Assembly: GCA_017461565.1 (NCBI GenBank)
Contig: JAFTXQ010000002.1
Span: 1 to 64,000 of the forward strand
Direction: 5' to 3'
From: Oscillospiraceae bacterium
GTDB lineage: Bacteria; Bacillota; Clostridia; Oscillospirales; Ruminococcaceae
Length of the DNA stretch: 64,000 bases
A program made the translations under genes and the position numbers. Positions 12,909 through 41,234 of this stretch are shown here, in pieces (the first letter of the stretch is position 1; each line of letters opens with the position of its first letter). Below the pieces are notes generated by a model, which saw only the letters and a list, made by a program, of their open reading frames with translations, had not been told where the DNA came from and searched no databases.

Positions 12909-12935
12909 TTCATCTTTTCAAGTTTTGTGATCATT

Positions 12936-12968
12936 TCCCACGCCGAGGCTTCGGCCTCGGTTATGGGA
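12936..12968 (+). terminator. UUCG-capped hairpin between dockerin and cohesin-like genes
   Basis: CCGAGGC TTCG GCCTCGG (12943-12960) is a perfect stem with a stable tetraloop, extended by TCCCA / TGGGA. No T run follows, so it may be an mRNA-processing or stability element rather than a true terminator. Confidence 0.5.
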
Positions 12969-13004
12969 TGGTTATATAAACAAAAATTTATGGAGGAAAA
13001 TAAT

Positions 13005-13733
13005 ATGAAGAAGATTTTATCTCTCGGCGCAGCTGCTGCTGTTCTTTCTATGACAGCCGTTGCAGCTTCCGCTGCTATCGCTCCTGTGATGGTTGAAGAC
13101 GCAGCTATCGCAGGCGAGACAATCACTGTTGAGCTCACTGCTAATGGCATGACAACAACAGGTACACAGCTCACTGTTAACGCTTCTGAGAACCTCGAGT
13201 TCGTAGATTTCGTTAAGGGCGACGCTCTTTCTGACTGGGCACTCGTAGTATTCGAGGATAACTACCTCCTCTATGCTGACGTTGAGGCTCCTGCTGATGG
13301 TACAGTTATCGGTACAATCACATACAACGTAATCGGCGAGGCTGATGACGTTGTTACTATCGATCTCGTTGCTGACGCTGGCTTCGAGGCTGACGTTACT
13401 GAGGATTCTGCTCTCGAGGTAGTAATCATCTCTGACGAGACACAGGCTGGTGACATCACAGTTGACACAGCTGATACAGCTGATACTGCTGACACTGCTG
13501 ATACAGCTGATACAGCTGACACTGCTGATACAGCTGACACTGCTGATACAGCTGATACATCTGATGAGACTGTTGGCATCAGCGGCGTAACAGAGGATAC
13601 AGCTGATACAGCTGATACAGCTGATACAGCTGACACTACCGATACTTCTTCTCCTGACACAGGTATCGCTCTTGCAGTAGTTCCCGCAGTTCTCGCTGGC
13701 GCTGCTATCATCGTAGCTAAGAAGAGATCCTAA
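13005..13733 (+). CDS. Cohesin-like, SPDTG-anchored surface protein with TAD-repeat stalk
   Basis: A 242-residue exported protein. Residues 1-23 are a signal peptide. Residues about 25-146 have the sequence texture of a single cohesin module: AGETITVELTANGM, then LEFVDFVKGDALS (compare LEFVSVxxGD in cohesins), then DGTVIGTITYNVIGEADD. A stalk of Thr-Ala-Asp triplets follows (ten plus four units). The end is SPDTG, a hydrophobic span and KKRS, an anchor like that of the protein at 9217. The start at 13005 is fixed by GGAGG eight bases upstream. Directly after a dockerin gene, it is a plausible anchoring scaffoldin with one cohesin. The cohesin call is by eye and needs a profile search. Confidence 0.7.
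   Translation: MKKILSLGAAAAVLSMTAVAASAAIAPVMVEDAAIAGETITVELTANGMTTTGTQLTVNASENLEFVDFVKGDALSDWALVVFEDNYLLYADVEAPADGTVIGTITYNVIGEADDVVTIDLVADAGFEADVTEDSALEVVIISDETQAGDITVDTADTADTADTADTADTADTADTADTADTADTSDETVGISGVTEDTADTADTADTADTTDTSSPDTGIALAVVPAVLAGAAIIVAKKRS
13467..13643 (+). repeat. 9-bp coding minisatellite (Thr-Ala-Asp)n
   Basis: Ten TAD codon triplets at 13467-13556 plus a TSD variant, then four more at 13599-13634 plus TTD. Units alternate ACAGCTGAT and ACTGCTGAC spellings, so length change by slippage or recombination would keep frame. Confidence 0.9.
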
Positions 13734-14055: not shown

Positions 14056-14084
14056 TTGACAATAGAGTATAAATTTGATATAAT
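14056..14084 (+). promoter_or_regulatory. Consensus sigma-A promoter of the large ABC locus
   Basis: TTGACA (14056-14061), exactly 17 bases, TATAAT (14079-14084). A match this perfect suggests strong or repressor-controlled transcription of the genes from 14160 onward. Confidence 0.9.
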
Positions 14085-14159
14085 TAATACGGTATATATG
14101 ATAGCGGTGTTATGACTTTGTGTAAATAACACCTGTTTCCTGCGGGCGAAAGGACTAAA

Positions 14160-14885
14160 ATGGAACATATTATCGAAGCAAACAACGTCTGCATGGATTT
14201 CCAGATCGGCGACGGCAGCGTTGTTCATGCCCTTAAGGGCATAAATCTGCAGATACAGCCTAACAAGCTGTCTGTGCTGCGTGGGCGTTCCGGCTCGGGC
14301 AAGACCACGCTGATCAATATACTTGGCGCACTGGACCGCCCCACTTCGGGAGAGGTTCGGTTCCTTACTGATGATAACGATATCACAAAGCTGCCCGATA
14401 CTGCAAGGGATAAGCTCAGGCGTGGCGATATGGCGTTTGTTTTCCAGTCGGTTGCGTTGATATCCACTATGACTGCCTTTGAAAACGTTGAATTTGCGCT
14501 GAGGCTTACAAAACTGCCTTATCGGGAGCGTGTTGAGCGTGCAAAGCAGAGCCTTATTCAGGTGGGTCTTGAGAAGCGTATGTACCATCGTCCCGGTGAA
14601 ATGTCGGGTGGTGAGCAGCAGCGTGTCGCAATTGCAAGGGCAATCGCAACCTCGCCGAAGATCATTTTTGCGGATGAGCCCACTGCGGAGCTGGACTCCC
14701 CCACAGGCTTTGCCGTGATGAAGCTGTTTAAGGATCTGGTGAGGAATAACGACCTCACTATCGTCATGACAACACATGATACCTCTATGATGGAGGTCGC
14801 TGATATCGTTTACACACTGGAGGATGGCGTGATAAGCGACATTACAGTGAACCCTGACGTTGACGAGGAGGGAACGGATGCCTAA
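14160..14885 (+). CDS. ABC transporter ATP-binding protein, LolD/MacB type (first)
   Basis: A 241-residue ABC ATPase. Walker A is GRSGSGKT (residues 42-49), the Q-loop is VFQSVALI, the signature MSGGEQQRVAIARA (from 148), Walker B IIFADEPTAELDS and the H-loop MTTHD. The length and the SGEV/ALDRPTSG spacing are those of the LolD/FtsE/MacB subfamily, not of the longer MalK/MsmK sugar-importer ATPases, which carry a regulatory domain. It is the first gene after a consensus promoter and overlaps the next ATPase gene by 8 bases. Within this locus the only permeases are of MalF/MalG type, so its partner is uncertain. Confidence 0.9.
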   Translation: MEHIIEANNVCMDFQIGDGSVVHALKGINLQIQPNKLSVLRGRSGSGKTTLINILGALDRPTSGEVRFLTDDNDITKLPDTARDKLRRGDMAFVFQSVALISTMTAFENVEFALRLTKLPYRERVERAKQSLIQVGLEKRMYHRPGEMSGGEQQRVAIARAIATSPKIIFADEPTAELDSPTGFAVMKLFKDLVRNNDLTIVMTTHDTSMMEVADIVYTLEDGVISDITVNPDVDEEGTDA

Positions 14886-15789
14886 AAAAGTTATGCTGGC
14901 TCCGCCTGAAAACGTCATGGTGCAGGCGGACAATCTGGTAAAAATCTACAAATCCTCGGATGTTGAGGTTATGGCGCTTCAGGGACTTGATCTTACGGTC
15001 GAGCGTGGAGAGCTGATGGGTATTGTTGGTGCCAGCGGCAGCGGTAAATCAACACTGCTGAATATGCTGGGCGGACTTGATCGTCCCTCTGCAGGCAGCC
15101 TTTTCATCGACGGAAAGGATATGCTTAAGTTCAGCGAGGCAGACTTTATCGAATACAAGCGAAAAACAGTCGGGTTTGTGTGGCAGAATAATGCACGCAA
15201 CCTTATTCCGTATTTAACGGCGGTTCAGAATGTTGAGATGCCTCTGCTTCTCTCGGGTTTCTCGGGCAGACGTCAAAGGGCGATAGAGCTTCTTGACATG
15301 GTTGGGCTTTCTCACAGAAAGAACAGCAGGCTGGACCAGATGTCGGGTGGCGAGCAGCAAAGAGTTGCGATAGCGATAGCGCTTTCAAACAATCCGAAGC
15401 TTCTGCTTGCGGATGAGCCCACGGGTTCGGTGGATACCGCAACCGCAAAGCTTATTCTTGATGTTTTCCGCAATCTTAACAAGGTCATGGGCGTTACCAT
15501 TATAATAGTAACGCATGATACAAAGCTTTCTGCCGAGATCGATCGTGTCGTTGCAATACGTGACGGTAAGACCTCGACGGAATTTGTTCGTAAGGCATCT
15601 GTACTGAAGTCCTTCGGCGAGCTTTCAGAAGCCGCTGCAGATGCAGGACACGAGGAGCTTTCTGTGCTTGACCGTGCAGGACGTCTCCAGATCCCCAAGG
15701 AATATCTTGAGGAGCTTGGGCTCAAGGGCGGCGATAAGGTCCGTGTTGAGCTTGACGACGGAAGGATCTGCATTTATCCCCGTCTGTAA
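14878..15789 (+). CDS. ABC ATPase of LolD/MacB type with C-terminal AbrB-like domain (second)
   Basis: A 303-residue protein. Residues about 15-240 are an ABC ATPase: Walker A GASGSGKS, signature MSGGEQQRVAIAIALS, Walker B LLLADEPTGSVD, H-loop VTHD. A linker follows, and residues about 262-303 (DRAGRLQIPKEYLEELGLKG, then DKVRVELDDGRICI) match the SpoVT/AbrB swapped-hairpin fold normally found in DNA-binding or antitoxin proteins. The start is the ATG at 14878 with GAGGAGGG six bases upstream, overlapping the previous gene by 8 bases, so the two ATPases are coupled and may heterodimerise. The AbrB-like tail could mediate oligomerisation or regulation; that is inference. Confidence 0.88.
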   Translation: MPKKVMLAPPENVMVQADNLVKIYKSSDVEVMALQGLDLTVERGELMGIVGASGSGKSTLLNMLGGLDRPSAGSLFIDGKDMLKFSEADFIEYKRKTVGFVWQNNARNLIPYLTAVQNVEMPLLLSGFSGRRQRAIELLDMVGLSHRKNSRLDQMSGGEQQRVAIAIALSNNPKLLLADEPTGSVDTATAKLILDVFRNLNKVMGVTIIIVTHDTKLSAEIDRVVAIRDGKTSTEFVRKASVLKSFGELSEAAADAGHEELSVLDRAGRLQIPKEYLEELGLKGGDKVRVELDDGRICIYPRL

Positions 15790-15873
15790 AATATAATGTA
15801 TCTTTGATCGGGCAGGGAGAAGCCCGGTTACGATATGCTGCAAAACAGTAAACTAGGAAAGGTGGAAAATACT

Positions 15874-18819
15874 GTGGCAAACATGCAAGGTATGAAGCTG
15901 AAAAGAATAACATCATTGTTTTTGTCTGCAATGATGCTTACAACTTCTGTTCAGTTTCAGATGACGGTTGGCGCAGCTGCTGCGGAAGAGAGCAGTTCAA
16001 CCACATCGTCATCGGTAAGCGCTGACATGGTAGGCATGTCCAGCAAAGAGGATGCGTATAAAAGCTATATCGAAAAGCACGCTGACGCACCCAAGCCTAT
16101 GGAGGAGATAATCGTTGATGTCACCGATTATGAAGCTTCCGACGGCGCAATCACTGAGGTCAAGGATTTCCAGGGCGAAGAGGATTGCGTTTCCTGGCTT
16201 GATAGCGAGGGAACTATCACATGGAAATTCAACGTAAAGACAGCAGGTCTTTATAACCTTAAAATGAAGTATTATGCAGTGTCCGGTCAGAACACCACCG
16301 TTGAGGTGGGTCTTAAGATCGACGGTGAGAATCCCTTTGACGAGGTTCAGCTTGTTGAGCTTGACCGTTACTGGCACAGCGAAACTGCTATCGAATATGA
16401 CGCAAAGAAGAAGAATCAGAAGCGTCCTCCCCAGGTAGAGTACGATGAGCTGTGGGTGGATTATCCTATCAAGGATAAGGACGGTCTGATCAATACTCCG
16501 TATTTCTTCTACCTTTCCGAGGGTGAACATACATTAGCGCTTGAAGGTGTCAAGACAAACATCTACATGAAGGATATACGCTTCTTCAACAGCGAGGAGC
16601 TTCCTGATTACGCTGATATCAAGCCTGCTCAGGATCAGATCGACAGCACGCCTGCTCTCTCCGATGGCAACGCTATCCTGATCGAGGCAGAGTCCCCCAA
16701 GTACACAACAGCTTCCACGCTGTATCCTACATACGACAGAACAGACTATACTGTCAGCCCCTCACATCCCGTTAACAAGCGCTATAACACGATCGGCCTT
16801 GATACATGGGATCAGGCTACACAGTCTATCTGCTGGGAATTTGATGTTCCTGCAGCGGGATATTATTCCATCCGCCTCAAGGCACGCCAGAGCACGATGC
16901 GTGGTTTCTTCTCCAACCGCCGTGTGTACATAAATGGCGTGGTTCCCTGCAAGGAGCTTGACGACGTAAAGATCAAGTATGACCCCAACTGGCAGGGCGT
17001 TGAGTTCTGTGATGCTAACGGTGAGGCAATTTACGTTTACCTCAACGAGGGCAAGAACCAGATCATGCTGGAAGCCATTCCCGGTGAGATCGGTGAAGTA
17101 ATGCAGCGACTGGATGACCTGATCTTCGATCTTAACTACTATTACAGACGTATTCTGATGATTACAGGTCCCAGCCCTGATGAGTTCAACGACTACTTCC
17201 TTGACGAGCAGATCCCCAACCTGCTGGACGTTTTCCAGAATGCCATCGATACCCTTTATGAGGAAAAGGCATTTATCGAGAGAATGACAGGAGAGGGCTC
17301 TGAGGCTTCTACACTTCAGACAATGGCAGTCATCCTTGAGATGGCTGTTGAAGAGCCTGATGAGATCCCCCTGATGCTCGGAAGCATCAAGGATCAGATC
17401 TCTGCGGTGTCTGCATGGATGCGTGACTACCGTGACCAGCCCCTTGAGCTTGACTACATCGAAGTAAAGACGGCTCATGACCAGTATAAGGATATGGGCT
17501 CCAACTTCTTCGCAGCATTTGTATTCGGCTTCCAGGCATTTATCGGATCTTTCTTTGAGGACTACACTTCCATCTCCGATTCTACAACAAAGGCGCTGAA
17601 TGTATGGGTATCCCTCGGTCGTGACCAGGCAACCGTAGTAAACGAGCTTGTAAGCTCCGAGTACAACCCCAACCACTCAACTCAGATCGCTATCAGCCTT
17701 GTACAGGGTGCTGTGCTCGAGGCTACTCTCGCAGGCAAGGGTCCTGAGGTCGCACTGTTCATCGGCGGCGACTTCCCCGTAGTATGCGCTTCCAGAGGAC
17801 TTCTGGTGAACATGAAGGACTTCACTGACTATAACGAAGTCATTTCAAGATTCTCCGAAGATATCACAACGCTTTACGAGTTCAACAATGGCGTTTATGG
17901 TATCCCGCTGACCCAGAACTTCCCGATGCTGTTCTATCGTACCGACGTTCTTGAAGAGCTCGGTTACACAGAGCCTCCGGAGTCATGGGATACACTGATC
18001 AATATGCTCCCTGATCTTCAGAGAAAGTACCTTGAGGTTGGTCTGCTCCTGCCCTCCAACGTTTCTTCTCAGGTATTTGACGCAGGTAACACCTTCGTTC
18101 TTCTGATGAACCAGACCGGTCAGAGCTTCTACAACGATACACTGACCGCTACAACATTCGAGACAGAGGCTGCTGTTGAAGCGTTCACAAAGTGGACAAA
18201 GTTCTACACCGTTTACGACTTCGACCAGACCTATGACGCATTCACACGTTTCAGAACAGGTGAGATGCCAATTTGTATACAGGCTTACACATTCTATAAC
18301 CAGCTGAACGTAGCTGCTCCCGAGATCAAGGGTCTGTGGGACTTCACCCACGTTCCCGGCTCCTACAGAACTGACGAGAACGGTAAGAAGATTCTCGACT
18401 ATACCGCAAACTCCGGTTCCGCAGGTGCAGTTATCTTCCAGTCCTGCTCCGACAAACAGGCTGCATGGGACTTCATCAAGTGGTTTACAGAGACCGATAC
18501 ACAGGTTGAGTACGGTAAGACGATCGAGGCTATCATGGGCCCGCTCGGCCGTTACGACACCGCAAACGTAGAGGCTCTTTCCAAGCTCAACTGGTCAACA
18601 GCTGAGTACAACAAGATCCACGATCAGATGATGAACCTTCAGGAGGTTCCGATCATCCCCGCTTCCTACGCTGTAACACGTAACGTTTACAACGCATTCA
18701 GAGCGGTAGTAAACAACCAGAAGAACCCCAGATATCAGCTCAGCTCTTACAACAGAGATATCAACTCTGAGATCGTAAGAAAGCTCAAGGAGCTTGGCTT
18801 CTACACAGAAGAGAATTGA
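15874..18819 (+). CDS. Very large extracellular solute-binding protein with two carbohydrate-binding-like modules
   Basis: A 981-residue exported protein. A GTG at 15874 is taken as start because AAGGTGG lies eight bases before it; an in-frame ATG at 15835 has no site. A signal peptide (residues about 1-35) is followed by a Ser/Thr stretch. Two beta-sandwich modules resembling CBM6/35-like galactose-binding folds span roughly residues 78-236 (WKFNVKTAGLYNLKMKYYAV) and 266-425 (ILIEAESPKY, WEFDVPAAGYYSIRLKA). Residues about 569-981 form a family 1 solute-binding protein (ALNVWVSLGRD, YGIPLTQNFPMLFYRTDVLEELG). No lipobox is seen, so retention at the surface is unexplained. It is about twice the usual SBP length. 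It precedes the first permease pair. Confidence 0.88.
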   Translation: MANMQGMKLKRITSLFLSAMMLTTSVQFQMTVGAAAAEESSSTTSSSVSADMVGMSSKEDAYKSYIEKHADAPKPMEEIIVDVTDYEASDGAITEVKDFQGEEDCVSWLDSEGTITWKFNVKTAGLYNLKMKYYAVSGQNTTVEVGLKIDGENPFDEVQLVELDRYWHSETAIEYDAKKKNQKRPPQVEYDELWVDYPIKDKDGLINTPYFFYLSEGEHTLALEGVKTNIYMKDIRFFNSEELPDYADIKPAQDQIDSTPALSDGNAILIEAESPKYTTASTLYPTYDRTDYTVSPSHPVNKRYNTIGLDTWDQATQSICWEFDVPAAGYYSIRLKARQSTMRGFFSNRRVYINGVVPCKELDDVKIKYDPNWQGVEFCDANGEAIYVYLNEGKNQIMLEAIPGEIGEVMQRLDDLIFDLNYYYRRILMITGPSPDEFNDYFLDEQIPNLLDVFQNAIDTLYEEKAFIERMTGEGSEASTLQTMAVILEMAVEEPDEIPLMLGSIKDQISAVSAWMRDYRDQPLELDYIEVKTAHDQYKDMGSNFFAAFVFGFQAFIGSFFEDYTSISDSTTKALNVWVSLGRDQATVVNELVSSEYNPNHSTQIAISLVQGAVLEATLAGKGPEVALFIGGDFPVVCASRGLLVNMKDFTDYNEVISRFSEDITTLYEFNNGVYGIPLTQNFPMLFYRTDVLEELGYTEPPESWDTLINMLPDLQRKYLEVGLLLPSNVSSQVFDAGNTFVLLMNQTGQSFYNDTLTATTFETEAAVEAFTKWTKFYTVYDFDQTYDAFTRFRTGEMPICIQAYTFYNQLNVAAPEIKGLWDFTHVPGSYRTDENGKKILDYTANSGSAGAVIFQSCSDKQAAWDFIKWFTETDTQVEYGKTIEAIMGPLGRYDTANVEALSKLNWSTAEYNKIHDQMMNLQEVPIIPASYAVTRNVYNAFRAVVNNQKNPRYQLSSYNRDINSEIVRKLKELGFYTEEN

Positions 18820-18869
18820 CCGTTTTCTGTGGTCATCGCTCTCCCCAATAAAAATTAGGAGGAATCAGC

Positions 18870-19808
18870 TTGTTCGGTAAAGAAAAATCGCAGTATATCG
18901 AAGACAGTAAGTTTCGTTATACGATGCGTGAGATCAAAAAGAACGGCAGCGCATACATACTCGCACTTCCGTACTTCATTCTGTTCCTGATCTTTACGGG
19001 TATTCCTGTTCTTATCTCCCTCCCTATCGGCTTCACCAGCTTCAACATGGTACAGTTCCCGACATGGGTGGGACTAAGCAACTTCTATACTCTGTTCCTT
19101 CAGGATGACGTTTTCCTTATTGCTATTCAGAATACACTTGTATTCGCTATCATCACAGGCCCCGTCAGCTACGTGCTCTGCTTCCTGCTGGCATGGCTCA
19201 TCAATGAGATGCCCGGTGCGCTCAAGACTGTATTTACTTACATTTTCTACGCTCCCACACTTGCAGGTAACATCTTTGCAACATGGCAGCTCATATTCTC
19301 GGGCGATACATACGGCTTCCTTAACTCCACTCTGATGGATCTCGGTCTTATCAAGGGTCCTCAGCAGTGGCTGACTGACGCAAGATACATCCTCATGTGC
19401 GTTATCGTCGTACAGATGTGGATGTCCCTCGGTGCAGGCTTCCTGTCGCTCCGTGCGGGCTTCCAGGGAATTGACCGTTCCGGTTACGAGGCAGGCGCTA
19501 TCGAGGGTATCAAGAACCGCTGGCAGGAACTGCTGTACATCACTATCCCCAGCATGGGCCCGCAGCTTCTGTTCGCAGCTGTAATGCAGATAACATCCTC
19601 CTTCACCGCCGGTGATATCGGACGTTCTCTGACAGCATTCCCCTCTACTGATTACGCAGCGCACACGATCATGACCCACGCATTCGACTACGGTTCCATC
19701 CGTTACGAGATGGGTTATGCCTGCGCAGTCTGCTTCCTGCTCTTCGTTGTCATGCTGCTCGTTAACAACGTAATACGCAAGGCAATGAGCGGAATTTTGG
19801 ATACTTAA
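18870..19808 (+). CDS. ABC sugar-type permease, MalF/UgpA family (pair 1)
   Basis: A 312-residue membrane protein with six predicted transmembrane spans (first at YILALPYFILFLIFTGIPVL). The cytoplasmic coupling loop EAA motif is YEAGAIEGIKNRWQELLYIT followed by IP, so it should contact an ATPase. Translation starts at TTG 18870, preceded by AGGAGG seven bases upstream. It follows the solute-binding protein by 50 bases and is 12 bases from its MalG-type partner, as in CUT1 oligosaccharide importers. Confidence 0.92.
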   Translation: MFGKEKSQYIEDSKFRYTMREIKKNGSAYILALPYFILFLIFTGIPVLISLPIGFTSFNMVQFPTWVGLSNFYTLFLQDDVFLIAIQNTLVFAIITGPVSYVLCFLLAWLINEMPGALKTVFTYIFYAPTLAGNIFATWQLIFSGDTYGFLNSTLMDLGLIKGPQQWLTDARYILMCVIVVQMWMSLGAGFLSLRAGFQGIDRSGYEAGAIEGIKNRWQELLYITIPSMGPQLLFAAVMQITSSFTAGDIGRSLTAFPSTDYAAHTIMTHAFDYGSIRYEMGYACAVCFLLFVVMLLVNNVIRKAMSGILDT

Positions 19809-19820
19809 GGAGGACAGAGC

Positions 19821-20681
19821 ATGCGTATTATACAGAAAAGAAAGAAGTGGGGCGGCTCACGTGGAGGCGACATTGCGATATTCATTATCCTGTGCCTTAT
19901 CGGCGTGTTCATGCTGTTCCCCATCTACCTGTCCGTTATCCAGTCAATAAAGCCTGTTGAGGAACTCTTCGTGTTCCCTCCCAAGCTTTATGTACAGCGT
20001 CCCACCTCCCAGAACTTTGAGGATATGCTCAAGGTTGCGGGTAGCCTGGACGTTCCCTTCTCAAGATATGTATTCAACTCGGTATTCGTATCCGTTGTTG
20101 TAACGATCGCTCAGCTGTTCCTTTCCTCTTCTGCGGCTTATGTGCTTGCAAAGGTAAAGGCACCCGGCATCAAGGCTATGAACAAGACGATCGACGTCGC
20201 TCTGCTGTTCACATCCTCCGTTACATACATCGTACAGTACATCGTAATGGCTACTCTCGGCATGATCGATACATACTGGGCTATCACACTGCCCTTTATC
20301 GCAACTCCTATGGGTCTGTTCCTTATGAAGCAGTTCATGGGCCAGATACCGGAAAGTATGATAGAGGCCGCAAAGCTCGACGGTGCGAGCCACCTCAGAG
20401 TATGCTGGCAGATCGTAATGCCCAACGTTAAGCCTGCTTGGCTGACACTGATGATCTTCGCTTTCCAGGGCGCTTGGCAGATCACAGGTTATCTCTTCGT
20501 TTATAGTGAGCAGCTTAAGCCTATCCCGATCGTAATGCAGCAGATCGCTGCTGCGGGTATTGCCCGTACCGGCGTATCCTCCGCAACGGTCGTAGTGCTG
20601 ATGTTACCTCCGATGATACTGTTCCTTATCCTGCAGTCCAACGTTGTTGAAACGATGGCTCACTCGGGTCTTAAGGATTGA
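19821..20681 (+). CDS. ABC sugar-type permease, MalG/UgpE family (pair 1)
   Basis: A 286-residue membrane protein with six predicted spans and the CUT1 EAA loop MIEAAKLDGASHLRVCWQIV followed by MP. AAGGAGG precedes the ATG by seven bases. With the gene before it, it forms a heterodimeric importer channel. No MsmK/UgpC-type ATPase is encoded in the window. Confidence 0.92.
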   Translation: MRIIQKRKKWGGSRGGDIAIFIILCLIGVFMLFPIYLSVIQSIKPVEELFVFPPKLYVQRPTSQNFEDMLKVAGSLDVPFSRYVFNSVFVSVVVTIAQLFLSSSAAYVLAKVKAPGIKAMNKTIDVALLFTSSVTYIVQYIVMATLGMIDTYWAITLPFIATPMGLFLMKQFMGQIPESMIEAAKLDGASHLRVCWQIVMPNVKPAWLTLMIFAFQGAWQITGYLFVYSEQLKPIPIVMQQIAAAGIARTGVSSATVVVLMLPPMILFLILQSNVVETMAHSGLKD

Positions 20682-20710
20682 TGAATTAATTAACGAAAGG
20701 ATGATTTTGA

Positions 20711-22348
20711 GTGCCATCAATTAAGCGCATCGCAGTCCGTGCTGCGGCTGCGGTAATGGCTTCCGTAACACTTTTCACAAGCGTTGCTTATGCCGATGAG
20801 CCGTACGATGGCTACAACTACGACTGGTGGGGCGATCCCGTTCCCTCTCAGAACGGCTACGTTGTAGACAAGGTTATTACAGGCTCGGACATCGGCGTCG
20901 GAGCCCTTAACGAGCCCGGTGATATGTTCATTTCGGACAACGGCGATATATATATTGCAGATACTGCGTACAAGGGTACGCTCGACTCCAGCATGAAGGG
21001 CAGGATCGTTGTTACTGACAGCAATTTCCAGCACAAGACAACGATCGAGTATCTCGATTTTGGTGATGTCCAGGACTGGGTAGCAGAGCAGGATAACGCT
21101 CTCGCTTCCGGTGCTATCGATGATACACAGTACAAGAAAGTAACTGATATTTACTTCGACGGTCCTTCAGGTGTGTTTGTAGATGAGGATGTCATCTACG
21201 TGGCTGATAACTCCAACGACCGTGTGGTTTCCTTCACAGCGGAAACAGACGGAAACGGTGTAGGCTACGGTAAGGTAATCACCGTTTACACCCGTCCTGA
21301 CGCTGATGTTTACGACTCATCCACAACATTCAACCCCAGTAAGGTGCTGGTAGACGCTGCGGACAACGTTTATGTCTGCATCAAGTCCATCACAAAGGGT
21401 GCTGTTGTGTTCTCCCAGGATGGCGAGTTCAACGGCTTCTTCGGTGCAAACCGAGTTGAGGCGACCGCTGACGTTCTTCTCAACGCTTTCTGGAAGCTGA
21501 TATTCAGCCGTGAGCAGGTAAAGAAGATGAAGAGAAGCGTTCCTGTCGAGATCTCGAACTTCGACATCGACGAGGATAACTTCATCTACACCGTAACAGA
21601 GTCCAAGAATGTTGAAACAGACATTATCAAGAAACTCAACTCCGCAGGTACTAACATTTTCACAAACTTAGGTTATTCTGAAAATACCTTTGGTGACTAC
21701 CTTACAAAGTATTACCGTGGACAGACATACTCTTCACAGATCACAGACGTTGATATCGGTGAAAACGGAACCATCAACCTGCTTGACCTCAAGACAGGTC
21801 GTGTGTTCCAGTATGACAATGAGTGTAACCTGCTGTTCATCTTCGGCGGCAAGGGCTCCCAGAAGGGTACATTCACCACAGTAAACGCAGTAGAGAGCGT
21901 AGGTACAAACGTATATGTTCTCGACGGACGTAAGGCAAGCATCACAAAGTTCAAGCAGACAGAGTTCGGCTCCATCGTTCATGATGCGATCACCCTCTTC
22001 AACAGAGGTAAGTACGATGAGGCAAAGGCACCCTGGGAGGAAGCTCTCAGACGTGACTCTAACTACTGGCTCGCTTATATTGGTTTAGGTAATGCTTACC
22101 TTAACCAGGGCGAATACGAAGTTGCGATGGACTACTTCATGTACAACTCCAAGGTCGGATATAACGACGCTTTCAAGGGTTGGAGAATGGACTTCATCAG
22201 AGACAACTTCACACTGATCGCTGTTATCATCGTAGGTCTGCTCGTTCTTGTTTATGTTATCGCAGCGATAAGAGGCAAGGTGAGAGCTAAGAAGCGTGCC
22301 GAGGCTGAAAGGCTGTTCAAGGCACAGAATAAGGGAAGGGAGGACTAA
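20711..22348 (+). CDS. Exported NHL-type beta-propeller protein with TPRs and a C-terminal membrane anchor
   Basis: A 545-residue protein starting at GTG 20711 (AAAGGATG upstream). Residues 1-28 are a signal peptide. About 45-410 is an NHL-like propeller with repeated blades of the type LNEPGDMFISDNGDIYIAD, GPSGVFVDEDVIYVADNSN and DVDIGENGTINLLD. Residues about 423-483 are two TPR units (ALFNRGKYDEAKAPWEEAL, AYIGLGNAYLNQGEYEVAM). A single transmembrane span (499-521) and a basic tail follow. The propeller therefore lies outside the cell. It sits between the permease pairs and next to the Yip1 gene, suggesting a scaffold or sensor for the transporter. Confidence 0.85.
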   Translation: MPSIKRIAVRAAAAVMASVTLFTSVAYADEPYDGYNYDWWGDPVPSQNGYVVDKVITGSDIGVGALNEPGDMFISDNGDIYIADTAYKGTLDSSMKGRIVVTDSNFQHKTTIEYLDFGDVQDWVAEQDNALASGAIDDTQYKKVTDIYFDGPSGVFVDEDVIYVADNSNDRVVSFTAETDGNGVGYGKVITVYTRPDADVYDSSTTFNPSKVLVDAADNVYVCIKSITKGAVVFSQDGEFNGFFGANRVEATADVLLNAFWKLIFSREQVKKMKRSVPVEISNFDIDEDNFIYTVTESKNVETDIIKKLNSAGTNIFTNLGYSENTFGDYLTKYYRGQTYSSQITDVDIGENGTINLLDLKTGRVFQYDNECNLLFIFGGKGSQKGTFTTVNAVESVGTNVYVLDGRKASITKFKQTEFGSIVHDAITLFNRGKYDEAKAPWEEALRRDSNYWLAYIGLGNAYLNQGEYEVAMDYFMYNSKVGYNDAFKGWRMDFIRDNFTLIAVIIVGLLVLVYVIAAIRGKVRAKKRAEAERLFKAQNKGRED

Positions 22349-22351
22349 GCC

Positions 22352-23116
22352 ATGAGATTTGATCTCGATATGCCGGCTTGGAAATGGCCGTTCTACATTA
22401 TGGTCCACCCCTTCGAGGGCTTTGAGGACCTCAGATGGAAGAAAGCTTACAGCATGAGAGTTTCCATGGTCATCGTAGCACTGTTCTTTATCATCAGTGT
22501 ATGTGAGCAGCTCATGACAGGCTTCCTCTTCAACGAAAACTACGTTAAGATCTTTAACATCGTTCCTATCATTATCCAGACGATCGTACTGTTCTTTACA
22601 TGGGTAATCGGTAACTGGGCACTTTGTACACTGTTCGACGGCGAGGGTACAATGAAGAACATCTGCGTTAACACTGCTTATGCTCTTGTACCTCTTCTGA
22701 TCGGTAAGGTCGTAAACATTATACTCAGTAACTGCCTGTTAAGAACAGAGTCAGCATTCATCACCTTTGTTGGTTATCTTACCATACTCTGGTCGGTGGT
22801 ACTGCTGATTTCGGGCATGAGAACGGTTCACCAGTATTCAATACCTAAGACCCTTCTGTTTATGCTGATAACAGTCTTTGCGATGGTAGTTATCATCATA
22901 CTGCTCGTGCTTCTCGTTTCGCTCTTCCAGCAGGTATATGTATTCATATACTCCATTTATACAGAGCTGCTGTACAGATTCTCAAATCTGGAACCCACTG
23001 CTCTTATTCTGATATTCATCGGCGTTATCGTTGTCGTTGCTACCATCGTTATTGCAGCCTACACTGCGTTTGAGAAGTATCAGCTGAAGAAGGAGCTTCA
23101 GAAGCTTAAATCCTGA
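22352..23116 (+). CDS. Yip1-family integral membrane protein
   Basis: A 254-residue protein with five hydrophobic spans. The N-terminal region WPFYIMVHPFEGFEDLRWK is typical of bacterial YIP1-domain proteins, which have no established role. It begins three bases after the preceding gene stops and is probably translationally coupled to it. In this locus it may help assemble the multi-permease complex, but that is only inference from position. Confidence 0.85.
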   Translation: MRFDLDMPAWKWPFYIMVHPFEGFEDLRWKKAYSMRVSMVIVALFFIISVCEQLMTGFLFNENYVKIFNIVPIIIQTIVLFFTWVIGNWALCTLFDGEGTMKNICVNTAYALVPLLIGKVVNIILSNCLLRTESAFITFVGYLTILWSVVLLISGMRTVHQYSIPKTLLFMLITVFAMVVIIILLVLLVSLFQQVYVFIYSIYTELLYRFSNLEPTALILIFIGVIVVVATIVIAAYTAFEKYQLKKELQKLKS

Positions 23117-23168
23117 TCGAACAGTAAAATAGACTAAGGCTTTTAATATTGAAAATGGTGGTGTAAAA

Positions 23169-25523
23169 ATGCTTCAATTACGCAAGAAAATACTTGCCGG
23201 CGTGCTTTGCTCAGCACTTGCACTTTCGGCAAGCCAGAGCGTTGCATGGTCGGAGAACGCAGATGTTCTCGCCGAAGCCGGCACTGTCGAGTCCGCTGAT
23301 GCTGCTGATACAGCAACAGACGCAGGCGCAGCCGATGACGAAGCTGCTGCCCCTGTGACCGAAGCAGAGGCTCTCGCACAGTGCACGCTTTATGGCGAGA
23401 CAGCAACACACGAATTGTATGTGAATGAGACCACATGCGTATTCGCTGTGAAGAATAAGTCCACCGGATACTGCTGGTGGAGCAATCCTTTCGCTGCTGA
23501 TTCCGATCCCATTGCAAAAGGTGCTAACTTAGCCGGCCTTAAATCCGCTTTCTGCATTGATGCCGTTAAGGTAACCGATACAGAAGCTCCCAAGACCGCT
23601 GTCAAGTCCTTCAGCGAGTGTATCGACAAGGACAACTTCACATTAGAGAAGATCGACAATGGCTTTAAGGCTGTATATGAATTCAAGACACAGGGTATCA
23701 CATTACCCTATACCGTTAAGCTCGTTGATGATTATTTCGAGGTTTCCGTACCTGTTCAGGAGATAGTTGAGCAGGAGATGCAGGGCAACACCTCAGAGAG
23801 TATGCGTTCTGTTGTTGTTCTGAGCATGTTCAAGGACCTCGGCGCAGGCTCCTTCGACGAGGATGGCTACATAATCACTCCCGACGGCTCCGGTGCTGTT
23901 ATCAACTTCAACAACGGTAAGACAAAGGCAGCTGAGTATTCTCAGAGGCTGTATGGCAGAGATATTGCCATAAGCTCTGACATGGCTCCTGCCAAGACAG
24001 AGCAGGCTTACCTGCCTGTTATGGGTATCGTTAAGGAAGACAACGCACTTCTGGCGGTAGTTACCGAGGGCGAGGCTTATGCGACAGCAAGAGCGAGCGT
24101 CAACGGACAGGGCGCAAACAGCTACAACTCCGCTTGGTTTGATTTCAACCTGCGTTCCTCCGATTCCTACTTCATGGGACAGAGCAACTCCGCTCTTGAG
24201 GCTTATGAGACAAACATAATCCCCGAGGAGAACGTTACTGTACGTTACTATCCCATCGCTGAAGAGGATGCAAGCTACGTTGATGTGGCTCTCCGTTATC
24301 AGAAGCACCTTGTAGATACAGGTGTTCTGGCTGATGGCAAGACACAGGATGCCGACGCTCCCTTCTATCTCGATCTGTTTGGCGGTACTGTTAAGCAGCA
24401 GTCTGTTATGGGCTTCCCCATTTCTCTTGAAACTGCAGCTACTACATACGAGGAAGCTAAGCAGATAATCGAAAAGCTCAACAGCCTCGGAGTTGATGAT
24501 ATGATCATCACTTATGAGGACTTTAACAAAGCCGGCATCACAAGCAGGATCTCAGGCGGCGTTGATTATGCCGGTACACTTGGCGGCAAGTCCAAGTTCA
24601 CACTGCTTGCTGACTACTGCAACAGCATAGGTGCAGTGCTTGCCCCTAGCGTTGACATAATGGAGTATGAGAGATCGGGCAACGGCTTCTCCAAGACCGG
24701 AGCTTCTGCGATCCGTGTTACCAAGGCTTATGCAACTCTCAACGAGTACGAGCGTGCTTTCGGTACACCGCACGATACCAGAACCAGCTGGTACATCCTT
24801 ACTCCCGCTTACTATGTCAAGGCGGTGACAAATATCGTTGACAGCTATGTAAAGGAAGGCCTGACAGCGATCTCGCTTGAGCAGGCGACAAATATGCTGT
24901 ACAGCGACTTTACCGCAAACGTAAACAAAAAGACATCAAGACAGCAGGCAGTGGATTATCTGAAGCAGTGCTATCAGATAATCAAGGATAATAATCTCAC
25001 ATTTGTTGCAGACGCCTGCAACAACTACGCACTGCAGTATGTCGACTTCATCAGAAATGTTCCGCTTTACAGCTCCAATTTTGATGTATATGATTATGAC
25101 ATTCCGCTGTACGAGATCGTTATCCACGGCTACATCCCCTACACCACAAAGGCTAAGAATGCAAGCTCTGGTGCGGATGAGCTGTTCCTCCTCTCTGTTG
25201 CAACAGGTACTCCTGTTCACTATGAGGTAATGCACGAGAACCCCAACGAGTTCACAGACTGCGCTTATGATACTCTGTTCTACACCTACTACGAGGGCTG
25301 GCTGGAAATAGCAGCAGCAGAGTACAAGCTGATCCAGGATCACATCAAGGATCTGTCTGATGAAACTATTACAGATTTCGAGTATGTAGAGGCTGATGTT
25401 GTCAAGACAACATTCTCCGATGGTACAGTTATCAAGGCTGACCTCGATAACCTTACACTTGAGATCAACGGCAGCGAAGTAAAGCTTGCCGACTACGGAC
25501 TGAAAGGAGCGACAACTAACTGA
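23169..25523 (+). CDS. Exported DUF5696-like protein (glycosidase-like barrel)
   Basis: A 784-residue exported protein. A signal peptide (1-26) is followed by an Ala/Glu/Asp-rich linker (30-65). Residues about 70-400 are beta-rich with the signature PDGSGAVINFNNGK near residue 240 and YSQRLYGRDIA after it, which I associate with DUF5696. Residues about 410-700 look like a TIM barrel (EEAKQIIEKLNSLGVDDMII, TISLEQATN-like acidic segments) resembling glycoside hydrolases, but catalytic residues cannot be assigned. The C-terminal 40 residues are a small beta domain. It overlaps the next permease gene by one base. It may process the ligand captured by the solute-binding protein. Confidence 0.8.
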   Translation: MLQLRKKILAGVLCSALALSASQSVAWSENADVLAEAGTVESADAADTATDAGAADDEAAAPVTEAEALAQCTLYGETATHELYVNETTCVFAVKNKSTGYCWWSNPFAADSDPIAKGANLAGLKSAFCIDAVKVTDTEAPKTAVKSFSECIDKDNFTLEKIDNGFKAVYEFKTQGITLPYTVKLVDDYFEVSVPVQEIVEQEMQGNTSESMRSVVVLSMFKDLGAGSFDEDGYIITPDGSGAVINFNNGKTKAAEYSQRLYGRDIAISSDMAPAKTEQAYLPVMGIVKEDNALLAVVTEGEAYATARASVNGQGANSYNSAWFDFNLRSSDSYFMGQSNSALEAYETNIIPEENVTVRYYPIAEEDASYVDVALRYQKHLVDTGVLADGKTQDADAPFYLDLFGGTVKQQSVMGFPISLETAATTYEEAKQIIEKLNSLGVDDMIITYEDFNKAGITSRISGGVDYAGTLGGKSKFTLLADYCNSIGAVLAPSVDIMEYERSGNGFSKTGASAIRVTKAYATLNEYERAFGTPHDTRTSWYILTPAYYVKAVTNIVDSYVKEGLTAISLEQATNMLYSDFTANVNKKTSRQQAVDYLKQCYQIIKDNNLTFVADACNNYALQYVDFIRNVPLYSSNFDVYDYDIPLYEIVIHGYIPYTTKAKNASSGADELFLLSVATGTPVHYEVMHENPNEFTDCAYDTLFYTYYEGWLEIAAAEYKLIQDHIKDLSDETITDFEYVEADVVKTTFSDGTVIKADLDNLTLEINGSEVKLADYGLKGATTN

Positions 25524-26737
25524 TGAGTGACGAAAGAAATTTCGACCTTGCAGGCGAAGCTGAGGTTAACACTGAAGCGGCAGAAGAAGTTGTAACTGCT
25601 CCTGCTGAAGCTGAAGCCGCTCCTGCGGCTGAGGCGGCTCCTGTGGCTGAGGCCGCAGCTGAAACACCTGTCGAGGAGACAGCAGAGCCCGCTGCTCCTG
25701 TAAGAGTATCTGCGCATAACACTGCCGCTGCTGCTGCATTCAATGCTGCCAACGAGGAAGTGGATGTCCGCAGAAAGAACGGCGAAAAAGTACAGCGCAA
25801 GATCAAGACTACAAAGATCTCCTATGAGAGAAAGAAGAGCCTTTACGGCTACGGATTTATCGCACTCTGGGCGATCGGTACAGTATGGCTGTTCCTTATC
25901 CCTGTTATCACATCTTTGTGGTATTCACTTTCCGATACGTTCCTGTATGCAAAGCAGGACGCTCTGATGCACGGTATGACCACTGCAGGTATCTATACCG
26001 AGTGGAACGACTTCGGAAACTATATCAAGGCATTTACAAGCGATACAACGTTCCTGCCTAACCTCGGTACAGCTCTTGCCGATATCGGACCCAAGGCGGT
26101 CGTTATCCTTATTTTCTCTCTGTTCATTGCGGTTATCCTTAACCAGAAGTTCAGAGGAAGAACGCTTGCAAGATCTATCTTCTTCCTGCCCGTGCTTATC
26201 GCAACAGGTCCCGTTATCAGCGTTATCAACGGTGATATGGCGTCCCAGGGCGTATCCGAGGCTTCCCAGTTCAGCACACTGTTCAAGACTGACCTTGTAA
26301 CTGAGCTGATGGAGTTCATCGGTATCTACAATATCAACCAGACATTCACGGATGTTATCAAGGATATCACCAGTGACGTACTTAACCTTGTATGGAACTC
26401 CGGTATCCAGATCCTGATCTTCCTGTCCGCTCTGCAGACAATTCCTCCTTCTGCGAAGGAAGCTGCAAGCATGGAGGGTGCTACCGCCTGGGAGTTCTTC
26501 TGGAAGATCACATTCCCCTACATCAGCCCGATGATCCTTTCCAACCTGGTATATACCATCATCGACGCATTCGTTTCTACGGACAACGTTGTAATGGAAC
26601 AGGTACTCGGACTGTCCAGAGACTGGGAGTACGGTTACTCCGCAGCACTGGCATGGATCTACTTTGCGATCATAGCAGCCTGCCTTGGCGTTATTACTGT
26701 GATAGTAAACAGATTCGTATTCTACGAGAATGATTAA
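25523..26737 (+). CDS. ABC sugar-type permease, MalF family, with acidic N-terminal extension (pair 2)
   Basis: A 404-residue membrane protein. Residues about 8-57 are a low-complexity Glu/Ala/Pro extension in the cytoplasm, followed by a basic linker and six predicted spans. The EAA loop is AKEAASMEGATAWEFFWKIT followed by FP. Its ATG overlaps the TGA of the upstream gene. The first periplasmic loop is longer than in pair 1. The extension is unusual for CUT1 permeases and might dock a cytoplasmic partner. It forms a heterodimer with the following gene. Confidence 0.9.
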   Translation: MSDERNFDLAGEAEVNTEAAEEVVTAPAEAEAAPAAEAAPVAEAAAETPVEETAEPAAPVRVSAHNTAAAAAFNAANEEVDVRRKNGEKVQRKIKTTKISYERKKSLYGYGFIALWAIGTVWLFLIPVITSLWYSLSDTFLYAKQDALMHGMTTAGIYTEWNDFGNYIKAFTSDTTFLPNLGTALADIGPKAVVILIFSLFIAVILNQKFRGRTLARSIFFLPVLIATGPVISVINGDMASQGVSEASQFSTLFKTDLVTELMEFIGIYNINQTFTDVIKDITSDVLNLVWNSGIQILIFLSALQTIPPSAKEAASMEGATAWEFFWKITFPYISPMILSNLVYTIIDAFVSTDNVVMEQVLGLSRDWEYGYSAALAWIYFAIIAACLGVITVIVNRFVFYEND

Positions 26738-26750
26738 GGAGGTTAGAGAA

Positions 26751-27941
26751 GTGACAGATAATAATATGGAATTTCCTACCCAGGAAAACGTAAATGTTGC
26801 TAATCAGCCTGCTGAAGATGTAACATCCGCTCCCCAGAGCGAGAATATGACCGCTGCTGAAGCAATGGGTGATGCCGCTGCTGCTGTTGCGGTAGCTCCT
26901 ATCGAAACAAAGAAACCCAAAAAGGAAAAGAAAAAGAAGGACGATTACCGTGTGTCCAACTTTGATATCATCAAGAATTACCGCCACTATTCTGCCAAGG
27001 AGAAGAAGCACTACCGCTACATCTTCTGGCGCAGAGTTTCTAGCTGGGTATGGCCGTTCTTCAGATTCATTATTGTATTCGGTCTTTCGTTCGTAATCCT
27101 TTATCCTATCCTTTACATGATCTCCACGGCTATCCGTCCTCAGGCTGAGATGAACGACCCCTCAGTAATGTGGATCCCCAAGACTATCCGTTTTGAGAAC
27201 TTCGTTGAGATCTGGAACGCTATCGACTATCCCAACACCCTTTGGAACACGCTGGTTCTGAATATCGTATCCTCTATCCTTCAGGTTGCCACCTGTGCGA
27301 TGACAGGCTACGGTTTTGCACGTTTCAAGTTCAAGGGTAAGGGTATCCTGTTCGGCATCGTTATCATGCAGATCATCGTTCCTACACAGATCATCCTGAT
27401 CCCTCAGTATATGCAGTTCAGATACTTTGACGTATTCGGTATCTTCAATGCGCTGCTGGGCGACTCTATCAGTCTTGTTGATACAAACTGGGCGATGTAC
27501 ATTCCTGCATTCTTCTGTAACGGTATCCGTGCCGGTCTGTTCATTTATCTGTTCAGACAGTTCTTCAGAGGACTTCCCAAGGAGCTCGAGGACGCTGCTT
27601 ATCTTGATGGCTGCGGTCCGTTCAAGACATTCATCAGCGTTATGGTTCCCAACGCAGCAAGCTCCTTCCTGACAGTATTTATCTTCTCGATCGTTTGGTA
27701 CTGGAACGACTACTATGTATCCTCCATGTACTTCACACAGGGCAATACCATTTCCCTTAAGATCGACAGTATTGCAACTCTGATCTCCATGTATCTGTAT
27801 AATGAGGTCAGAAACGCTTCCGACTTCCTTGTATGGATGGAAGCAGGATGCTTGCTTGCAATCGCTCCTATCGTTATCATGTATGTCTTCCTTCAGAAGT
27901 ACTTTACAGAGGGTATTGAGCGTGCAGGTCTTGCTAACTAA
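26751..27941 (+). CDS. ABC sugar-type permease, MalG family, with long N-terminal extension (pair 2)
   Basis: A 396-residue membrane protein. GTG 26751 is chosen because AAGGAGG lies eight bases upstream; the in-frame ATG at 26730 overlaps the previous gene and has no site. Residues 1-100 are cytoplasmic: an Ala/Glu/Gln stretch, then a lysine-rich segment (ETKKPKKEKKKKDDYR) and an aromatic-basic helix. Six spans follow, with EAA loop ELEDAAYLDGCGPFKTFISV. This is the last gene of the locus; a terminator follows 55 bases later. Confidence 0.9.
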   Translation: MTDNNMEFPTQENVNVANQPAEDVTSAPQSENMTAAEAMGDAAAAVAVAPIETKKPKKEKKKKDDYRVSNFDIIKNYRHYSAKEKKHYRYIFWRRVSSWVWPFFRFIIVFGLSFVILYPILYMISTAIRPQAEMNDPSVMWIPKTIRFENFVEIWNAIDYPNTLWNTLVLNIVSSILQVATCAMTGYGFARFKFKGKGILFGIVIMQIIVPTQIILIPQYMQFRYFDVFGIFNALLGDSISLVDTNWAMYIPAFFCNGIRAGLFIYLFRQFFRGLPKELEDAAYLDGCGPFKTFISVMVPNAASSFLTVFIFSIVWYWNDYYVSSMYFTQGNTISLKIDSIATLISMYLYNEVRNASDFLVWMEAGCLLAIAPIVIMYVFLQKYFTEGIERAGLAN

Positions 27942-29105: not shown

Positions 29106-29948
29106 TTACTGCTGCATGATATTTACATTACCGCTGGTGAGGGAGATGCTAACCTTGTGGCAGTTTTCGCCGCCGATAACACCCGAAGTTCCCTTGCCGA
29201 GATTCATGCTCTGACCCTTTGCCATGCCGATGTCAGTGCGGAGATTTCCGGAAACGCCTTCAAACTTGATGTCTGCGCCTGAGTTTTCAGGAAGAGTGAT
29301 GTTGATTGTGCCGCTGATGGCGCTTATGTCAAGATCGTTGTTCCATTCGGCGTAATTCACGTTAACGCTGCCAGATGTGACTGCTATCTTGCCCTTGCCA
29401 GAAGCGCCGTTGTAAGTGGTCACGCCTGAAACGGAATGCACGCTGAACTCCTCTGCCTTGTAGCAGCTGATATCTGCGCTGCCCGAAACTGTGCATACAG
29501 TGACGGATTTTGCTGTCTTTTCCTCAGGACAGGTGAGTACGATATTTCCCGAGGCAGACTGGATCTTTACGCTTTCAAAGAAAGAGTTGATGTTAATATT
29601 GCCCGATGCTGTGTTAAGATCGAAGTCAGCCGCTGTGATGTCGTTGATCTCGACTCCGCCGCTTGCTGTGTTTACCTTGATCTTGCCGAACAGCTTTTTG
29701 GGAAGCATTACGGTGATGGTGTAGCCCTCTGTGGGCTTTGTGCCGAAGATGCTGAAGGAGAGCTTCTCCTTGAAGGTGAGTGTAGTACCGCTGAGAACAG
29801 CGCAGAATTCAGGAGAATCCTTGGGGTTGTCGTATTCAGCGTAGATCTCATCCGAGTCGTGGCTCTTCATGATGATCTTTGCTCCGAGAGAGCTTACCTC
29901 AACTGTTTCGATTGTGCCTGCGTTAAATCTGTAGATCTGCTTTTCCAT
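29106..29948 (-). CDS. DUF4097-family beta-repeat protein, cytoplasmic form
   Basis: A 280-residue protein of repeated short beta-strands with a SG or ASG turn (KVNTASGGVEINDI, DLNTASGNININ, KIQSASGNIVL, DISAISGTINITLP, VEGVSGN-like), the texture of DUF4097/adhesin-type right-handed beta-helix domains. It has no signal peptide or membrane span, unlike the related gene at 30094. DUF4097 proteins accompany PadR and HAAS (DUF1700) genes in envelope-stress operons in Firmicutes; a role here in sensing or membrane surveillance is inferred from that. It is the last gene of the leftward operon. Confidence 0.85.
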   Translation of the reverse strand: MEKQIYRFNAGTIETVEVSSLGAKIIMKSHDSDEIYAEYDNPKDSPEFCAVLSGTTLTFKEKLSFSIFGTKPTEGYTITVMLPKKLFGKIKVNTASGGVEINDITAADFDLNTASGNININSFFESVKIQSASGNIVLTCPEEKTAKSVTVCTVSGSADISCYKAEEFSVHSVSGVTTYNGASGKGKIAVTSGSVNVNYAEWNNDLDISAISGTINITLPENSGADIKFEGVSGNLRTDIGMAKGQSMNLGKGTSGVIGGENCHKVSISLTSGNVNIMQQ

Positions 29949-30093
29949 GATAAAATACTCCTTTCAAAAGTACAAAAATTGAATTTCAGTAAAAATATGG
30001 GTCTATTTTAAGCGCACCCGTGGTAGAGGGCTGCCGCTGCATTTTTCGTGCAGTCCTCATCAGGGTATGCTTTATTACGGTCGTTTGGTTTCG

Positions 30094-41205: not shown

Positions 41206-41234
41206 TTGACAAATATAAAAGCTTGTGATATAAT
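41206..41234 (+). promoter_or_regulatory. Consensus promoter of the tRNA-Thr/tRNA-Tyr operon
   Basis: TTGACA (41206-41211), exactly 17 bases, TATAAT (41229-41234), 34 bases before the first tRNA. Confidence 0.92.

What the first reader, a model, noticed from the sequence alone, without database searches (positions are those of the whole stretch)
14056..27941. Ten-gene envelope locus combining LolD/MacB-type ATPases with two MalF/MalG permease pairs
All ten genes run in one direction behind a perfect consensus promoter, with several overlaps, and end at a terminator. Four CUT1-type permeases with intact EAA loops are present but no MalK/MsmK ATPase; the only ATPases are two coupled LolD-like proteins. 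The remaining genes are a 981-residue solute-binding protein, an extracellular propeller-TPR protein, a Yip1 protein and a DUF5696-like barrel. This composition does not fit a standard sugar importer and could be a new type of glycan or polymer uptake or envelope-processing machine.
Basis: partly seen in the sequence, partly recalled or inferred. Interest (0 to 1): 0.8.

Follow-up and report, generated by a model that had tools for sequence, protein, structure and literature searches.

The report
Glycan importer operon with misplaced exporter ATPases
This gut bacterium's ten-gene operon is a widespread, already partly described plant-glycan uptake module, with two ATPase genes at its head that appear to belong to a separate export pump encoded elsewhere in the genome.

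Summary
The ten genes, promoter and terminator-like site are real. (1) Eight genes (solute-binding protein, F1, G1, NHL/TPR, Yip1, DUF5696, F2, G2) form a module found across Bacillota: 79 of 140 mapped loci visibly lack A1-A2, 33 have them, 28 cannot be judged. It matches the transporter part of the published Caldicellulosiruptor bescii xylan degradation locus (xloEFG-X-GH129-axoFG), where CUT1 uptake needs the unlinked shared ATPase MsmK. The window's genome has one MsmK-type ATPase. (2) ATPases A1-A2 go with a MacAB/YknXYZ-like exporter: distant homologues form a contiguous HlyD-like adaptor, FtsX permease, A1, A2 operon. In the window's family the adaptor and permease lie elsewhere, with no ATPase seen beside them. 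Among 80 DUF5696 genomes, a long permease match occurs in 28, all with A1-A2, and in none of the other 52. A1-A2 changed state at least five times on the DUF5696 tree. So A1-A2 very probably do not power the MalFG permeases. New is an exporter split so that its ATPase half is transcribed from a glycan-import operon. Its cargo, and any physical coupling, are unknown.

The parts
14056..14084 (+). sigma-70 consensus promoter (TTGACA-17-TATAAT, TG before the -10)
14160..14885 (+). A1: LolD/MacB-class ABC ATPase, assigned to the exporter
   Evidence: synteny with FtsX permease in relatives
14884..15789 (+). A2: LolD/MacB-class ABC ATPase with C-terminal MazE/SpoVT-AbrB-like tail, assigned to the exporter
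   Evidence: co-occurrence with FtsX permease
15835..18819 (+). large solute-binding protein, CBM35-like N-terminal part (sub-threshold) plus SBP_bac_8 domain (XloE-like)
18870..19808 (+). F1: MalF-type CUT1 permease with EAA loop
19821..20681 (+). G1: MalG-type CUT1 permease with EAA loop
20711..22348 (+). NHL propeller-TPR protein with C-terminal TM segment (fused to Yip1 in 22 mapped relatives)
   Evidence: TM segment read from the sequence
22352..23116 (+). Yip1-domain membrane protein
23169..25523 (+). DUF5696 protein with signal-like N-terminus (the gene labelled GH129 in the C. bescii locus)
25523..26737 (+). F2: MalF-type CUT1 permease with long Ala/Glu/Pro-rich N-terminal extension
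26730..27941 (+). G2: MalG-type CUT1 permease with EAA loop
27996..28019 (+). terminator-like hairpin (10 pairs, T-rich tail) before the RNase H gene

Best explanation
The operon carries parts of two systems. Genes 3-10 are a cell-surface oligosaccharide uptake module: the large SBP captures plant-glycan fragments, the NHL/TPR-Yip1 unit and the DUF5696 barrel act at the outer face of the membrane (scaffold and probable side-chain trimming), and two CUT1 permease pairs import the products using the genome's unlinked MsmK-type ATPase. Genes 1-2 encode the ATPase pair of a MacAB/YknXYZ-like exporter whose HlyD-like adaptor and double-FtsX permease are encoded on another contig, so the exporter's motor is made when the import operon is on. 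Shown: synteny, co-occurrence with FtsX, repeated joint absence of A1-A2 and FtsX, presence of a MsmK-type ATPase, homology to the C. bescii locus. Inferred: MsmK pairing in this species, substrate class, A1-A2 as a heterodimer, DUF5696 activity, exporter cargo.
For: Of 140 mapped loci, 33 carry A1-A2, 79 visibly do not (SBP with at least 1 kb shown upstream), 28 cannot be judged; SBP, F1, G1, NHL, DUF5696, F2 and G2 are all found in 113 of 140 (some genomes occur twice, some loci are cut by contig ends). The XynR operator of the C. bescii locus lies upstream of the module's SBP in L302 and L064, and the 14-gene order of L302 agrees with the published xloEFG-X-GH129-axoFGE-xyn order. In C. bescii the proximal XDL genes rise about 10-100-fold on xylan against cellobiose, and an msmK deletion is severely impaired on xylan, cellulose, pectin and cellobiose (PMC8579813, passages). 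MsmK-type ATPase: 1 found in own genome, 46 of 50 module genomes, near the module in 1 of 140 loci, L107. EAA loops alike with and without A1-A2. A1-A2: contiguous HlyD-like, FtsX, A1, A2 in G452, G439, G446; the FtsX permease is in 14 of 61 relatives = the 13 A2-positive ones plus G427, whose module contig starts at Yip1. In the 80 genome contigs genomes a match of at least 585 of 930 positions is in 26 of 26 with A1-A2 at the module and in two of the other 54, both A2-positive; none in the remaining 52. The HlyD-like gene is beside it in 28 of 28. The A1-A2 label needs 6 changes, at least 5 forced, on a DUF5696 tree, and the negatives nested among positives lack FtsX.
Against: No experiment in this organism. 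No MsmK-type match in 4 of 50 module genomes, 2 of them with A1-A2 (incomplete assemblies possible). The XynR operator is not in the window up to 3 mismatches, so xylan as substrate is not supported by it. In the genus A1-A2 lie beside the module in all 10 A2-positive genomes and in none of the 21 genomes without the module, so a functional tie to the importer is likely and this statement does not explain it. A2 was searched genome-wide in 40 of the 54 genome contigs genomes without A1-A2 at a visible locus; the other 14 were judged by locus. No second SBP lies next to F2-G2 in the window, though one does in relatives such as C. bescii.
Confidence: 0.82

Rival explanations
1. One reading: A1-A2 are the motor of the four MalFG-type permeases, replacing MsmK in a hybrid importer.
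For: A1-A2 head the same operon in 33 of 140 loci with a median A2-SBP gap of 60 nt; none of the ten proteins is a MalK-type ATPase; 2 of 26 A1-A2 genomes tested showed no MsmK-type match.
Against: 79 of 140 loci visibly lack A1-A2 and absence arose several times on the tree; A1-A2 co-occur with an FtsX permease that their homologues neighbour; EAA loops do not differ with A1-A2; the C. bescii module has no ATPase gene among its 14 genes by my queries and CUT1 uptake there needs MsmK.
Confidence: 0.05
2. Importer and exporter form one functional machine: A1-A2 with the FtsX/HlyD-like complex act mechanically or by export on the surface glycan complex (assembling, releasing or cleaning it), which is why the ATPases sit in the import operon and are absent where it is absent.
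For: Among 37 same-genus genomes A2 (10) and FtsX (11) occur only in the 16 that show the module, and A1-A2 lie directly before the module's SBP in all 10. FtsX-type systems are known for mechanotransmission (recalled).
Against: The module is kept without A1-A2 and FtsX in many lineages; in G452, G439 and G446 the contiguous exporter is not beside the module; no physical evidence.
Confidence: 0.2
3. A1-A2 at the head of the module are tied to it by shared regulation only; the exporter expels toxic compounds met during plant-fibre growth (phenolics, bacteriocins), in the manner of YknXYZ of Bacillus subtilis (recalled).
For: HlyD-like, FtsX and LolD-class make-up; the FtsX locus in the own genome shows no glycan genes by reading the neighbours (a MATE-like transporter is next).
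Against: No cargo evidence; in the genus seen only with the module.
Confidence: 0.35

Closest known systems
[quoted passage not shown]
   Same: Same order SBP-F-G-NHL/TPR(-Yip1)-DUF5696-F-G; operator and 14-gene order recovered in L302
   Different: There NHL/TPR is fused with Yip1, a second SBP and further genes (xylanases by the paper) follow, and no A1-A2 precede it
Shared-ATPase CUT1 importers (MsmK/MsmX of C. bescii, Streptococcus pneumoniae, Bacillus subtilis, as named in PMC8579813)
   Same: CUT1 permeases without a MalK-type ATPase in the locus, one MsmK-type ATPase in the genome
   Different: Two permease pairs, a giant SBP and DUF5696, NHL and Yip1 proteins in one operon
MacAB / YknXYZ-type exporters (adaptor, FtsX-family permease, LolD-class ATPase; make-up recalled)
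   Same: HlyD-like adaptor directly before an FtsX/MacB_PCD permease; LolD-class ATPases contiguous in three order relatives
   Different: Two ATPase genes, one with an AbrB-like tail; permease with two FtsX stretches; in this family the ATPases are encoded apart, in a CUT1 operon
GH129 / 3,6-anhydro-D-galactosidase (5opq)
   Same: Weak collinear profile similarity of DUF5696 (E 0.041); authors' GH129 label in C. bescii
   Different: Pfam shows no glycosidase family for the window's or the L302 DUF5696 protein up to E 10; activity untested

Membership tests
CUT1 ABC importer | SBP plus MalF/MalG-type permeases with EAA coupling loops | tested here: met
CUT1 ABC importer | MalK/MsmK-type ATPase with OB domain available in the genome | tested here: met
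   one UgpC/MsmK-type ATPase found, unlinked; genome about 93% complete
CUT1 ABC importer | permeases bind that ATPase | not testable with these tools
   inferred from the C. bescii msmK deletion
XDL-type SBP-F-G-NHL/Yip1-DUF5696-F-G module | conserved gene order | tested here: met
   all seven non-Yip1 genes in 113 of 140 loci; L302 order
XDL-type SBP-F-G-NHL/Yip1-DUF5696-F-G module | XynR operator of C. bescii | tested here: not met
   0 matches in the window up to 3 mismatches; exact matches only in L064 and L302 of 303 loci. A different host would use its own regulator
XDL-type SBP-F-G-NHL/Yip1-DUF5696-F-G module | induction by xylan | not testable with these tools
   no expression data for this organism
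MacAB/YknXYZ-like exporter (A1, A2) | LolD/MacB-class ATPase with intact Walker A, signature, Walker B and H-loop | tested here: met
   (33 of 33 for each, by pattern)
MacAB/YknXYZ-like exporter (A1, A2) | cognate FtsX permease and HlyD-like adaptor in the genome | tested here: met
   on contig C17 of the own genome; co-occurrence
MacAB/YknXYZ-like exporter (A1, A2) | ATPase encoded beside the permease | tested here: not met
   split in this family; contiguous in G452, G439, G446
LolCDE lipoprotein release | LolD equivalog score | tested here: not met
   187.3 bits (A1) and 223.2 bits (A2) against a cut-off of 307.75
GH129 | GH129 family match and glycosidase activity | tested here: inconclusive
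   activity not testable

The most novel reading that the evidence does not exclude
A1-A2 plus the unlinked FtsX/HlyD-like complex are an accessory engine of the surface glycan-import machine: an exporter or mechanotransmitter whose ATPases are delivered together with the importer, possibly regulated or dimerised through the AbrB-like tail of A2.
Probability: 0.2. Interest if true: 0.75.

Novelty: new variant of a known kind. Interest (0 to 1): 0.45.

Why it matters
It shows that operon membership can mislead: ATPases next to permeases very probably belong to another transporter. It gives a clean case of a split exporter with its motor subunits placed in a glycan-uptake operon of gut fibre degraders, and it ties the DUF5696, NHL/TPR and Yip1 proteins, whose roles are unknown, to a xylan-responsive locus in an organism with genetic tools, so their roles can be tested.

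Tried and rejected
Direct pairing of A1-A2 with MalFG: rejected (see rivals). 'No MsmK': rejected, one exists. The genome holds one other CUT1-type pair, on contig C4, so the permeases here need not be the only MsmK clients. A cohesin domain in the secreted protein at 12927-13733: no Pfam hit up to E 10, dropped. The divergent ATPase beside R. flavefaciens-type modules, labelled MSMK at 70-86 bits, is by its representative an ABC ATPase next to an ABC2_membrane gene (16 and 14 loci), not MsmK. Structure prediction of DUF5696 could not be run: the machine was busy. Literature, open-licence PMC full text only: DUF5696 gave 0 papers; searches aimed at the Yip1/NHL module, the split exporter, or an ABC ATPase with a SpoVT-AbrB tail gave 0, 1 (off topic), 0 and 0 papers. 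One search was seen as a listing only and not followed.
Full report
Observation. The ten ORFs, their common strand, short gaps and overlaps and the consensus promoter are confirmed; a terminator-like hairpin follows. A2 also has a MazE/SpoVT-AbrB-like tail, present in 32 of 33 module-linked A2 proteins and in three outgroup homologues. Walker A, signature, Walker B and H-loop patterns are found in 33 of 33 A1 and 33 of 33 A2 proteins.

The eight-gene module. DUF5696 was found in 46 of 398 sampled genomes of the phylum (39 over the family cut-off) and 29 of 61 relatives. 113 of 140 hold SBP, F1, G1, NHL, DUF5696, F2 and G2; 97 hold these and a separate Yip1; 31 hold all ten genes; 33 hold A1-A2. 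Of the other 107, 79 show the SBP with at least 1 kb upstream and no A1-A2, and 28 cannot be judged. Yip1 is a separate gene in 108 loci and fused to the NHL/TPR protein in 22, never both; three with a long NHL ORF have neither by this test, one of them (L096) with a short Yip1-like ORF. So these two proteins probably act as one unit. Neighbour clusters, named from one representative each, include a canonical SBP (25 loci), an ABC-2 exporter ATPase and membrane gene on the other strand (16 and 14), LacI regulators (11), a GDPD-type membrane protein (8), GH95 (7) and GH26-CBM35 (6). The SBP, LacI, GH95 and GH26 neighbours point to plant-glycan use.

A published homologue. In PMC8579813 (passages seen) the C. 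bescii xylan degradation locus reads xloEFG-X-GH129-axoFGE-xynF-xynE-xynD-xyn10A-xynX-xynB. The XynR operator printed in PMC12285236 (passages) matches exactly in L302 and L064 and in no other of 303 loci. In L302 it lies upstream of fourteen co-directional genes; the first eight fit that order, with X = NHL/TPR-Yip1 and GH129 = DUF5696; the last six were not annotated by me. The paper reports xylan induction of the locus, and that deletion of msmK severely impairs growth on xylan, cellulose, pectin and cellobiose; it says that the CUT1 transporters there lack dedicated ATPases. PMC11212667 (one passage) restates this. The operator itself is not in the window, so the substrate in this species is inferred only as plant oligosaccharide.

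Energy source here. In the window's genome (92.8% complete) I found one MsmK-type ATPase, on another contig, and one further CUT1-type pair on contig C4. MsmK-type ATPases are in 46 of 50 module genomes tested, 24 of 26 with A1-A2 and 22 of 24 without (these 50 are 26 of 26 and 24 of 54 of the named set). In one of 140 loci (L107) a MsmK gene lies upstream of the module, with an opposite-strand ORF between. The EAA loops of all four permeases look the same with and without A1-A2.

What A1-A2 belong to. Distant A1-A2 pairs in G452, G439 and G446 directly follow a HlyD-like gene and an FtsX permease of about 930 residues; in G452 it has two FtsX stretches and a MacB_PCD domain. The HlyD-like matches there are weak (24-42 bits). 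That permease occurs in 14 of 61 relatives: the 13 with A2 and G427, whose module contig starts at Yip1. In the 80 genome contigs genomes a match of at least 585 of 930 positions is in all 26 with A1-A2 at the module, and in two of the other 30 searched, both A2-positive with A1-A2 before an SBP. Some of these matches are broken in two or cut by a contig end. The other 52 lack it, apart from a 43-residue stretch with a stop in G489. A2 was searched genome-wide in 40 of the 54 genomes without A1-A2 at the mapped locus, the other 14 being judged by locus; one further hit there, in G495 (44% identity, match ends before the tail), is a paralogue by my reading. In all 28 the HlyD-like gene is beside the permease, and no A1-, A2- or MsmK-like ORF shows in the flank of up to 1.5 kb held (a contig ends inside the gene in some). 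In the window's genome the pair lies near the end of contig C17, also with no ATPase beside it. On a quick tree of 77 DUF5696 rows (loci with unseen upstream and five duplicate loci left out) the A1-A2 label needs six changes, at least five forced. Negatives nested among positives also lack the permease: L145, L148, L176 (fragment only), L221, G416 and G420, L159 and L161. Repeated joint absence of unlinked genes is strong evidence that A1-A2 and FtsX work together, and that the importer works without them.

The tie that remains. Among 37 same-genus genomes, 16 show the module (15 by DUF5696, plus G405 by A1-A2-SBP at a contig end); A2 is in 10 and FtsX in 11, all within those 16, and in each of the 10 A1-A2 or A2 lies directly before the module's SBP. 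So the exporter may serve the importer; this is the open and more novel reading.

DUF5696. Similarity to solved structures is weak: two collinear segments of 3,6-anhydro-D-galactosidase (E 0.041; the top hit, a designer repeat protein at E 0.0013, is judged spurious), and sub-threshold overlap of its profile with alpha-amylase-type barrels and DUF6259. Conserved acids D580 (91%) and D642 (89%) in 141 sequences could be catalytic; this is inference.

Noticed in passing
10290-13733: A dockerin-type-I protein (872 aa) and a secreted protein with a DTA-rich tandem repeat and a C-terminal SPDTG-TM-KKRS end (read as a possible sortase signal) precede the operon; homologues precede A1 in same-genus A1-A2 loci.
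   Followed up: partly
14884-15789: ABC ATPase A2 ends in a MazE/SpoVT-AbrB-like domain, present also in outgroups where the exporter is contiguous; function unknown.
   Followed up: partly
41206-41234: A second perfect TTGACA-17-TATAAT promoter lies just before the tRNA-Thr/tRNA-Tyr genes.
   Followed up: no
25523-27941: F2 and G2 have N-terminal extensions of about 100 residues (Ala/Glu/Pro-rich, in G2 also Lys-rich) that F1 and G1 lack (read).
   Followed up: no
L176 genome (G489:C37:16122-16250): A 43-residue FtsX-permease-like stretch with an internal stop in a genome without A1-A2, possibly a decayed remnant.
   Followed up: no
29106-31257: Two minus-strand genes downstream of the operon encode repetitive, glycine- and serine-rich proteins of unchecked family (read).
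   Followed up: no
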